A DNA stretch of 40,179 nucleotides, taken from assembly GCA_009692745.1 (NCBI GenBank), contig SHYO01000015.1, positions 1 through 40,179 of the forward strand, given 5' to 3'. Under the pieces are notes generated by a model. That model was not told where the DNA came from. It saw nothing but the letters and a program-made list of their open reading frames with translations, and did not search any database. Made by a program: the position numbers and the translations under genes. Below are positions 32,069-34,861 of the stretch, piece after piece (position 1 is the first letter of the stretch; each line of letters begins with the position of its first letter). Source of the DNA: Chloroflexota bacterium (lineage in GTDB: Bacteria; Chloroflexota; Anaerolineae; Epilineales; SHYO01).

Positions 32069-33037
32069 TTGAAAAACGAACCCTCCAGGCGGTCGCTCCT
32101 GGTAATCATTTTTATCGGTATTCTGGCAGTCTCATCAGCCTCCATCTTAATCCGGATGGCCCAACAGGAAGCTAACTCTCTGGTAATTGCCGCCTATCGC
32201 CTTACCATTGCCAGCCTGGTGCTGCTACCTATCTGCTTCATAAATTACCGGGCCGCACTACAGGCCTTAACGCGTCGCGATATGCTCCTGGCCGTTTTAT
32301 CGGGCCTCTTCCTGGCTATCCATTTTGCAACCTGGATTACTTCCCTGGCCTATACCAGTATCGCCAGCTCGGTAGTCCTGGTATCCACCCACCCGTTTTG
32401 GGTGACTCTAGCAACCCTCCTGATCTTTCGCGAAGTGCCGGCGCGCCCCACCTTGACTGGTTTGATATTGGCCCTTGTTGGTGGTGCAATCGTGGGATTC
32501 GGGGATATAGGTATCGGAGCGAACGAGTGGCTAGGGGATATCCTGGCGCTACTGGGAGCCCTGGCGGCGGCAGGATACTTCTTAATTGGTCGCCACTTGC
32601 GCAGCAAGCTCTCTTTAATACCTTACATTACCCTGGTATATGGTACCTCGGCTATCCTGCTGATATCGTTTTGTCTGATTACCGGACAGCGCCTCTCAAG
32701 CTTCAGCCCAACAACATATCTCTGGTTGATCCTGCTCGGGATCGTGCCCCAACTGATCGGCCATTCCTCCTTTAATTACGCGCTACGCTATCTGTCGGCG
32801 ACCTTCGTCGCTGTGACGGTGTTGGGTGAGCCGATCGGCTCCAGTATGCTGGCTTTCCTCATACTCAACGAGACGCCCACAGCCGCTAAACTCCTCGGCG
32901 GTGGCCTGATCCTGGCCGGCATCTTTTTGGCATCCCGCACGGAACAAGCTGTGCCGCCCCGCGGGAATCTGGTACCTGCTGAAGTAGCGAAACCCGTTTT
33001 CTCTCCTGACACAGGTATGGAGAGACCAGATTTCTAA
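32069..33037 (+). CDS. EamA/DMT family permease
   Basis: A 322-residue membrane protein with ten hydrophobic helices in two homologous EamA halves (about 12-140 and 155-295), the classical drug/metabolite transporter layout. The start is TTG at 32069 with GAGGAT five bases upstream. LAIHFATWITSLAYTSIASSVVLVSTHPFW in part and the second-half PQLIGHSSFNYALRYLSATFVAVTVLGEPIGS are typical. The substrate is unknown; such proteins export amino acids, nucleosides or other small metabolites. The next gene starts 22 bases downstream, so it probably forms an operon with the HAD and presenilin-like genes. Confidence 0.9.
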   Translation: MKNEPSRRSLLVIIFIGILAVSSASILIRMAQQEANSLVIAAYRLTIASLVLLPICFINYRAALQALTRRDMLLAVLSGLFLAIHFATWITSLAYTSIASSVVLVSTHPFWVTLATLLIFREVPARPTLTGLILALVGGAIVGFGDIGIGANEWLGDILALLGALAAAGYFLIGRHLRSKLSLIPYITLVYGTSAILLISFCLITGQRLSSFSPTTYLWLILLGIVPQLIGHSSFNYALRYLSATFVAVTVLGEPIGSSMLAFLILNETPTAAKLLGGGLILAGIFLASRTEQAVPPRGNLVPAEVAKPVFSPDTGMERPDF

Positions 33038-33059: not shown

Positions 33060-33722
33060 ATGATTCAACACCTATTACTAGATCTTGACGAAACTCTCTA
33101 CACACCGGATACGGGTGTTATGCATGCAATCCGCGACCGAATACGGAGTTTCATGATTCAAGAAGTCGGCATTGCTGAAGCCGAAGTAGATCAGGTGCGG
33201 CGCCGTTTCAACCGCGAATATGGCACGAGCTTACGCGGACTACAAGCTGAATGCGAAATCGACACACCGTACTTCCTACGTTATGTCCATGATGTGCCCG
33301 TGGAAAAACTGTTAAAGCCTAGCCCGGCTCTGCGCCAGATGCTAGAAACCCTACCGATGCACAAACATATATTTACCAATGCTTACACCGACTACGTAGT
33401 CCGCGTCTTAAATGCCCTGGACATCACCGAATATTTCGACAATATTTTTGATGTAATCTCTTTCGAATACCGCAGCAAGCCCGATCCTTATGCCTATGAG
33501 CTGGTGCTCCAAGTTCTACAGTGTACGGCAGCAGCATGTCTGGTAGCCGACGATTCACCGCCCAATGTACGGACCGCCAAAATGATGGGTATGATCCCTG
33601 TCTTGGTCGGTCCCCTGCCCCAAGAAGCGCAGGAATTTCAGTACGTCATTCCCGATATCCTGCACTTACCCGACATATTGACAACCCTGGAACAAACCTA
33701 TAAAGGCGATAGCCTCAGATGA
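33060..33722 (+). CDS. HAD hydrolase, pyrimidine 5'-nucleotidase-like
   Basis: A 220-residue HAD-superfamily phosphatase. Motif I is LLLDLDETLYTP (nucleophile D8, acid/base D10), motif II is IFTNA, motif III is the Lys in RSKPDPYAYE, and motif IV is VADDSPPNV. The DLDETLY form with a small helical cap beginning YGTSLRGL is characteristic of the yeast Sdt1/Phm8 pyrimidine 5'-nucleotidase group, which dephosphorylates UMP/CMP or related nucleotides. Cytoplasmic. GGAG lies 9 bases before the ATG. It ends inside the start of the next gene (ATGA), so the two products are translationally coupled. Confidence 0.88.
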   Translation: MIQHLLLDLDETLYTPDTGVMHAIRDRIRSFMIQEVGIAEAEVDQVRRRFNREYGTSLRGLQAECEIDTPYFLRYVHDVPVEKLLKPSPALRQMLETLPMHKHIFTNAYTDYVVRVLNALDITEYFDNIFDVISFEYRSKPDPYAYELVLQVLQCTAAACLVADDSPPNVRTAKMMGMIPVLVGPLPQEAQEFQYVIPDILHLPDILTTLEQTYKGDSLR

Positions 33723-34576
33723 GATCTGCACCTATCTCTTTCGCAGGATTCCAAAAGATATCTGGCTGGTTGAGGTTTATCCTGGCCGGTATCGGATTTA
33801 TAGTGGTATTTTCGCTTGCCACCTGGTTGGCTCCCCGCCTGTCGCTTCCCCCTGAACCCTGGGGGTTGCTTATCACAGCTTTACTTCTGGTCAGCACCAG
33901 TGGCATCTGGATCTACCAGGTGAAATTTTTACCAACAGGAGGTCCCGCCGGCCAAATCCCCTCATCTAGAACAGCTCTGATAGTGCTGCCTGTCATGGTG
34001 TTTATGGCAGTGATAAACTACCTCTTCGTCGCCATCCTTCCCGTACCCTGGATTTCGACCCTGCTGGTGATCCTCCTGGCCTGTAGCTTGGGTTTACTAA
34101 TGGCCACATATCTCTTCTTTGACCCGGATATATTATTCCTCATCTGTGTCCTCTACATTCTAGTAGATATCTACTCGGTGTACCTGGGTCCGACAGGGGT
34201 GTTGGTTGCCAAGGGGGGCGTCGGGCTCAATCTCATGACGGTGCAGTATCCCATCTTCGGCAGCCGGGTGATCCAGCCGGTGACGGGCATGGCCGATTAT
34301 GCCGTCTGGACGGCCTGCCTACTCTCCGCGCAGCGTTTCAATTTCAATTACACCAATTCTTTTTGGGGTCTTTTTCTAGGACTGGTTGGTAGCGCCCTGG
34401 TAAGCATCTTGTCTGCTACTGCCGTACCTGCCTTGCCATTGATGATGGCAGGATACCTGATTGCAAACCGGCGCCACATCAACCTGAAGCGACGCGATCT
34501 CTGGTTCGCTGGTTTTTTCGCCCTGGCAGTGGCCATCGCTGCTGGCACGGTAGTCCGGTTCTTGATTGAAAGATAA
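33719..34576 (+). CDS. Multi-spanning membrane protein with presenilin-like motifs
   Basis: A 285-residue protein with about nine hydrophobic helices (roughly 18-37, 48-66, 86-105, 108-131, 137-156, 187-204, 215-232, 235-249, 261-281). I do not recognise it as a named bacterial family. Three spots match the catalytic layout of presenilin/SPP aspartyl proteases: D150 in LVDIYSVYLGPTG (presenilin YDLVAVLCPKG), D193 in TGMADYAVW (presenilin GLGDF), and P237-A-L-P240 in AVPALPLMM (presenilin PALPI). Order, helix number and distances all fit. Differences: V instead of Y before D150, and GMAD instead of GxGD. The start ATG overlaps the HAD stop by four bases. Could be an intramembrane protease or an inactive relative; function is inference. 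Confidence 0.75.
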   Translation: MRSAPISFAGFQKISGWLRFILAGIGFIVVFSLATWLAPRLSLPPEPWGLLITALLLVSTSGIWIYQVKFLPTGGPAGQIPSSRTALIVLPVMVFMAVINYLFVAILPVPWISTLLVILLACSLGLLMATYLFFDPDILFLICVLYILVDIYSVYLGPTGVLVAKGGVGLNLMTVQYPIFGSRVIQPVTGMADYAVWTACLLSAQRFNFNYTNSFWGLFLGLVGSALVSILSATAVPALPLMMAGYLIANRRHINLKRRDLWFAGFFALAVAIAAGTVVRFLIER

Positions 34577-34644: not shown

Positions 34645-34744
34645 TACCTAATGTCAGGTTTTAACTCGTAGTAGCCTATATTCTTGACTACTTTGAACCA
34701 TATTATTTGTTAAATATGCATGCAAGACCAAGCGACCTGGACCG

Positions 34745-34841
34745 GAGCGCGGTTTGGCAGAGTGCATTTCCTTGCCGGATCTCCTAGCCCTGGTTTTCGT
34801 TTGGAAAAAGAATCTACAAAGAACATGGCCAAACCGCGCTC
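34745..34841 (+). repeat. 14-bp inverted repeat bracketing the ABC exporter leader
   Basis: GAGCGCGGTTTGGC at 34745-34758 and its exact complement at 34828-34841, 69 bases apart. In RNA they would form a long-range stem that ends nine bases before the GGAG ribosome binding site (34851-34854). Either a regulatory leader or a very small mobile-element relic; no target-site duplication is visible. Confidence 0.65.
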
Positions 34842-34861
34842 TGTTCTATTGGAGATAAACC

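What the first reader, a model, noticed from the sequence alone, without database searches (positions are those of the whole stretch)
33719..34576. Presenilin-like intramembrane aspartyl protease candidate in a bacterium
The protein has about nine hydrophobic helices. D150 lies in DIYSVYLGPTG, D193 in GMADY, and PALP at 237-240. These match in order and context the three active-site motifs of presenilin (YDLVAVLCPKG, GLGDF, PALP). GMAD instead of GxGD and the missing Tyr before D150 make it divergent. The presenilin motif comparison is established knowledge; homology and activity are inference. If real, it would be a bacterial relative encoded in an operon with a nucleotidase and a permease.
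Basis: partly seen in the sequence, partly recalled or inferred. Interest (0 to 1): 0.8.

Follow-up and report, generated by a model that had tools for sequence, protein, structure and literature searches.

The report
Divergent presenilin-like protease in Chloroflexota
A bacterial membrane protein of a tiny, unnamed family keeps the two aspartates and the PAL motif of presenilin, the enzyme behind Alzheimer's amyloid, and its predicted fold resembles presenilin and its relatives more than anything else in the PDB, so it is probably a very divergent bacterial cousin of that protease.

Summary
The ORF at 33719-34576 (+) encodes a 285-aa polytopic membrane protein with D150, G190-x-x-D193 and PALP237-240. 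Two orthologues (36-38% identical overall) from another family of the same order keep D, GxxD, PALP and their spacing (43 and 44 residues) exactly. No curated family matches any member, and direct sequence homology to peptidase family A22 is only marginal. Fold evidence is stronger. Template-free AlphaFold2 models of two orthologues, although of low confidence (pLDDT 62-64), each rank presenilin-1/-2 and SPPL2a as the top 18 and top 17 PDB matches, with a sharp drop to everything else. Best reading: a highly divergent, bacterial A22-superfamily di-aspartyl intramembrane protease. It lacks the Tyr of YD and the second Gly of GxGD, appears to lack one N-terminal helix and has an extra C-terminal helix. 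Activity is unproven. 'A presenilin relative in a bacterium' is not new in itself: canonical PF06550 proteins (YD, GxGD, PALP) occur elsewhere in Chloroflexota, including NfeD fusions, although I found no paper on them. Verdict: new variant of a known kind, moderate interest.

The parts
33719..34576 (+). 285-aa polytopic membrane protein, proposed divergent A22-superfamily (presenilin/SPP-like) protein
   Evidence: ORF; two orthologues; Foldseek top hits presenilin/SPPL2a
34154..34198 (+). residues 146-160, YILVDIYSVYLGPTG: proposed first catalytic Asp (D150, codon 34166-34168) inside a membrane helix; invariant Y146, D150, Y152-S-V, G157-P-T in the family
   Evidence: hhalign pairs D150 with the YD Asp of PF06550 proteins
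34286..34300 (+). residues 190-194, GMADY: proposed second catalytic Asp (D193, codon 34295-34297) at the N-terminal end of the next helix; GxxD in place of GxGD
   Evidence: GATD and GAAD in the orthologues
34427..34438 (+). residues 237-240, PALP: proposed PAL motif, invariant as VPALPLMM in the family
34493..34570 (+). residues 259-284: extra C-terminal membrane helix absent from the Chloroflexota PF06550 proteins and the PSH segment compared
   Evidence: tail after PALP 48 residues versus 15-25 in those proteins
33060..33722 (+). HAD-family, pyrimidine 5'-nucleotidase-like gene (TIGR01993), overlaps the candidate by 4 nt; context, not conserved in relatives
32069..33037 (+). EamA-family permease; its orthologue directly precedes the candidate in L010/L003 but not in L011/L002

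Best explanation
The gene encodes a very divergent bacterial member of the presenilin/SPP (A22, GxGD) superfamily that probably still works as a di-aspartyl intramembrane protease. D150 and D193, on neighbouring helices, would together activate a water molecule that cleaves transmembrane segments of other membrane proteins. The PALP motif at the start of the next-but-one helix would shape the active site, as PAL does in presenilin. Shown here: the sequence features, their conservation, purifying selection and the fold ranking. Inferred: true common ancestry, catalysis, and the orientation. Loop charges weakly favour a cytoplasmic N-terminus with the loop between the two Asp outside, which is the SPP-like orientation for type II segments. 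The substrate is unknown.
For: D, GxxD, PALP and their spacing (43 and 44 residues) are identical in three orthologues only 36-38% identical overall (in P0002 the script caught an earlier PALP, and the motif PALP is at residue 232). Foldseek of the P0001 model against 350,542 PDB chains: ranks 1-18 are all presenilin-1/-2 or SPPL2a, best E 0.011, probability up to 1.00, first non-A22 hit probability 0.11. A second model, of orthologue P0003: ranks 1-17 all presenilin/SPPL2a, best E 0.044, probability 0.99, first non-A22 hit 0.04. In the viral library the highest-probability hit is a giant-virus signal peptide peptidase, 0.66. Profile-profile alignment to Chloroflexota PF06550 proteins pairs all three motifs in one path when the full path is printed; score 24.0 against a shuffle mean of 15.1, sd 2.5, with 1 of 300 shuffles as high. 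dN/dS between P0002 and P0003 is about 0.29 (dN 0.37, dS 1.28).
Against: No Pfam, NCBIfam, PHROGs or PDB sequence match. Direct hmmsearch with the PF06550-like profile gives only noise. hhalign scores with reversed profiles (21.6, 22.3) and with unrelated single membrane proteins (up to 21.0) come close to the real score. Models are of low confidence (pLDDT 62-64, TM-score to presenilin mostly about 0.3-0.4, below the usual 0.5 for same fold). The Gly before the second Asp, whose change to Ala slows archaeal PSH (PMC2947513), is Ala or Thr here, and the Tyr of YD is Val or Ile. The helix count before the first loop is five, not six as in presenilin.
Confidence: 0.6

Rival explanations
1. A presenilin-fold pseudoprotease: it descends from the A22 superfamily but has lost proteolysis and now serves as a membrane chaperone, channel or other non-proteolytic protein.
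For: The second Gly of GxGD and the Tyr of YD are lost in all three members; the corresponding Gly-to-Ala change slows MCMJR1 PSH (PMC2947513).
Against: Both Asp, G190 and PALP are strictly invariant across 36-38% identity, which a dead enzyme need not keep; the Gly change slows but does not abolish activity in PSH (PMC2947513).
Confidence: 0.2
2. An unrelated polytopic membrane protein (for example a small transporter) whose D, GxxD and PALP match presenilin by chance or convergence.
For: No significant sequence-profile match to A22; reversed and decoy profiles score almost as high; low-confidence models; it sits next to or near a permease gene in two of three genomes.
Against: Two orthologue models rank A22 structures as the top 17-18 of 350,542 PDB chains, with a steep drop to all other folds. 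The three motifs are in the right order, the two Asp are on adjacent helices, and all are invariant.
Confidence: 0.18
3. A member of the other GxGD clan, the type IV prepilin/preflagellin peptidases (A24).
For: A24 enzymes are also membrane di-aspartyl proteases with a GxGD motif and are common in bacteria (general knowledge).
Against: No A24 Pfam match and no prepilin peptidase or FlaK structure among the 50 best Foldseek hits of either model; a C-terminal PAL motif is a presenilin/SPP feature.
Confidence: 0.02

Closest known systems
Presenilin (A22A; human PSEN1/PSEN2)
   Same: Two Asp on adjacent membrane helices, Gly three residues before the second Asp, PALP at the start of a later helix; best fold match of both models
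   Different: Bacterial, 285 aa, short loop between the Asp (43 residues apart), no YD Tyr, GxxD rather than GxGD, five rather than six helices before the loop, one extra C-terminal helix
Signal peptide peptidase family / SPPL2a (A22B, PF04258)
   Same: SPPL2a is among the top fold hits; similarly short Asp-Asp spacing (from memory, not tested); loop charges weakly suggest the same SPP-like orientation
   Different: No PF04258 match to any member; GxGD and YD not kept
Archaeal PSH / MCMJR1 and Chloroflexota PF06550 proteins (NCBIfam NF041679 IMP_arch_presen)
   Same: Motif order; spacing from second Asp to PAL 44 here versus 47-53; occurs in the same phylum
   Different: Those keep YD, GxGD and PALP or GLP, end 15-25 residues after the motif and match PF06550; this family does none of these except PALP

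Membership tests
Peptidase A22 (presenilin/SPP) superfamily | Significant match to A22 profiles (PF01080, PF04258, PF06550, NF041679) | tested here: not met
   No Pfam or NCBIfam family for P0001, P0002 or P0003
Peptidase A22 (presenilin/SPP) superfamily | First catalytic Asp in a YD motif inside a membrane helix | tested here: inconclusive
   Asp invariant and inside a helix, but preceded by Val or Ile; an invariant Tyr lies four residues upstream
Peptidase A22 (presenilin/SPP) superfamily | Second catalytic Asp in GxGD on the next helix | tested here: not met
   GMAD, GATD, GAAD: first Gly and Asp invariant, second Gly absent in all three
Peptidase A22 (presenilin/SPP) superfamily | PAL motif at the start of a C-terminal membrane helix | tested here: met
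   VPALPLMM invariant, followed by a helix in both models
Peptidase A22 (presenilin/SPP) superfamily | Presenilin/SPP fold | tested here: inconclusive
   Top 18 and top 17 PDB matches are all A22, but TM-scores are 0.2-0.43 and pLDDT is 62-64
Peptidase A22 (presenilin/SPP) superfamily | Nine membrane helices, Asp on TM6 and TM7, PAL on TM9 | tested here: not met
   Model: Asp on helices 5 and 6, PALP on a short helix 8, extra final helix
Peptidase A22 (presenilin/SPP) superfamily | The two Asp face each other in the membrane | not testable with these tools
   Model coordinates are not exposed
Peptidase A22 (presenilin/SPP) superfamily | Asp-dependent intramembrane proteolysis | not testable with these tools
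   Needs biochemistry
Type IV prepilin peptidase (A24) | A24 profile match | tested here: not met
   No Pfam match

The most novel reading that the evidence does not exclude
A new, deeply diverged bacterial branch of the presenilin/SPP superfamily that catalyses intramembrane proteolysis with GxxD instead of GxGD and without the YD Tyr, on a rearranged helix set (one N-terminal helix fewer, one C-terminal helix more), showing that two residues regarded as hallmarks of the family are dispensable.
Probability: 0.45. Interest if true: 0.75.

Novelty: new variant of a known kind. Interest (0 to 1): 0.52.

Why it matters
Presenilin and SPP are described from eukaryotes and archaea, and I found no open paper on bacterial members. 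A small bacterial relative that lacks the Gly thought to give the second catalytic Asp its freedom, but keeps both Asp and PAL, would test which parts of the GxGD signature catalysis needs, and would provide a compact model protein. It would also extend the superfamily's diversity in Chloroflexota, where canonical members and an NfeD fusion also occur.

Tried and rejected
Single-sequence scan of 84,980 genomes: nothing; the repeat with the alignment found only the two orthologues. Viral contigs: nothing. Profile searches of 396 class, 400 phylum and 245 further genomes: only the three known members plus weak hits (E 5e-4 to 5e-3) to parts of other membrane ORFs. The best of these, L007, is a different sensor-like membrane protein by inspection. 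Full-length global hhalign gave a meaningless end-to-end overlap. PHROGs and PADLOC: nothing. Gene neighbourhood as a guide to substrate was rejected because it is not conserved. A24 peptidase considered and disfavoured (see rivals). Sequence-profile significance alone was rejected as proof because reversed and decoy controls come close.

Full report
What is there. The ORF 33719-34576 (+) encodes 285 aa with seven strong hydropathy peaks, D150 in DIYSVYLGPTG, GMADY at 190-194 and PALP at 237-240. It overlaps a pyrimidine-5'-nucleotidase-like HAD gene by 4 nt, which follows an EamA permease by 22 nt, so the three read like one operon in this genome.

Relatives. No Pfam, NCBIfam, PHROGs, PADLOC or PDB sequence match exists. 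Searching whole genomes found exactly two relatives, in another family of the same order. The same two contigs were found in GTDB as 'Anaerolineae bacterium' MAGs TGS_CHL14 and TGS_CHL1, so the window is from an Anaerolineae-class Chloroflexota bacterium (inference). Wider searches gave none, so the family is rare or too divergent to reach. The three proteins share 77 invariant positions, including Y146, D150, YSV, GPT, G190, D193, R206, VPALPLMM. D-to-D and D-to-P distances are 43 and 44 residues in all three (for P0002 the script reported an earlier, unrelated PALP, the motif one is at 232). dN/dS of the two closer members is about 0.29. The family is therefore a real, selected protein, and the three motifs are its conserved core.

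Gene context. An orthologous EamA gene directly precedes the gene in L010/L003 but lies on another contig in the other relative, where a penicillin-acylase-like gene (annotated by inspection only) precedes it. The EamA gene also exists in order members without the candidate. The neighbourhood therefore says little about function.

Is it presenilin-like? For comparison I collected Chloroflexota proteins that pass the PF06550 (archaeal-type SPP/presenilin) cut-off. Their alignment hits PSH 4hyc and presenilin in the PDB (one search repeats this with a profile that already includes 4hyc), so they are genuine A22 relatives with YD, GxGD and mostly PALP. Profile-profile alignment of the candidate family to them is suggestive: the unforced local alignment pairs D150 with the YD Asp, and when the full path is printed all three motifs pair. 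Its score (24.0) beats 299 of 300 composition-class shuffles, but reversed profiles reach 21.6 and 22.3 and unrelated membrane proteins 21.0, and direct HMMER scores are noise. Sequence alone does not prove homology.

Fold. AlphaFold2 with only three sequences gave low-confidence models (pLDDT 63.9 and 61.7; pTM 0.63 and 0.67). Nevertheless Foldseek ranks presenilin-1/-2 and SPPL2a as hits 1-18 for P0001 and 1-17 for orthologue P0003 among 350,542 chains, with probabilities up to 1.00 and 0.99; the first unrelated hits have 0.11 and 0.04. In the viral library the highest-probability hit is a giant-virus signal peptide peptidase. The two models share the same three-sequence family, so they are replicates rather than fully independent. 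TM-scores are low, and AlphaFold2 may partly recall A22 folds from the motifs. Model coordinates are not exposed, so the Asp-Asp distance was not measured.

Differences from the known family. The Tyr of YD is Val or Ile; the second Gly of GxGD is Ala or Thr. In archaeal MCMJR1 the equivalent Gly-to-Ala change slows but does not abolish cleavage, while either Asp is essential (PMC2947513). Five helices rather than six precede the loop between the Asp, and there is an extra helix after PALP: the tail is 48 residues against 15-25. Loop charges modestly favour a cytoplasmic N-terminus with the loop between the Asp outside, which matches the SPP-like orientation (opposite to presenilin; PMC7366577) if the first canonical helix is missing. 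This is inference.

Conclusion. Probability that it belongs by descent to the A22 superfamily: about 0.8. That it is an active intramembrane aspartyl protease: about 0.6. It fails formal membership tests (profile match, GxGD, helix count), so it should be called presenilin/SPP-like, not filed as an A22 member. Bacterial presence of the superfamily is not new at database level (PF06550 proteins in Chloroflexota), though I found no open paper about it.

Noticed in passing
L013:568-2142 (+), L012:592-2169 (+); similar long ORFs at L037-L040, L042, L043: In one Anaerolineae genus (g16) a 525-aa protein fuses an NfeD membrane domain and NfeD C-terminal domain to a presenilin/SPP domain (PF24961, PF01957, PF06550, PF04258; YD and GFGD present, GLP in place of PALP). 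Nine sampled genomes of the genus have the SPP match over cut-off, eight of them in open frames of 521-542 aa. No paper on an NfeD-presenilin fusion was found.
   Followed up: partly
L014-L022: Other Chloroflexota genomes encode canonical PSH-like proteins (YD, GGGD, PALP or PAMP), over the PF06550 cut-off but below the NCBIfam equivalog cut-off for archaeal PSH where tested.
   Followed up: partly
window 34742-34850: Long-armed inverted repeat (GAGCGCGGTTTGGC ... GCCAAACCGCGCTC) just upstream of the ABC transporter gene pair; folds at -44.4 kcal/mol, z -2.7; no Rfam match in the whole window. Possibly a leader or attenuator structure.
   Followed up: partly
L010:3270-4415, L011:6563-7774: Both relatives carry, immediately downstream of the candidate, homologous-looking putative secreted proteins of about 380-400 aa with no Pfam match; absent after the window gene. 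A possible partner or substrate in that genus.
   Followed up: no
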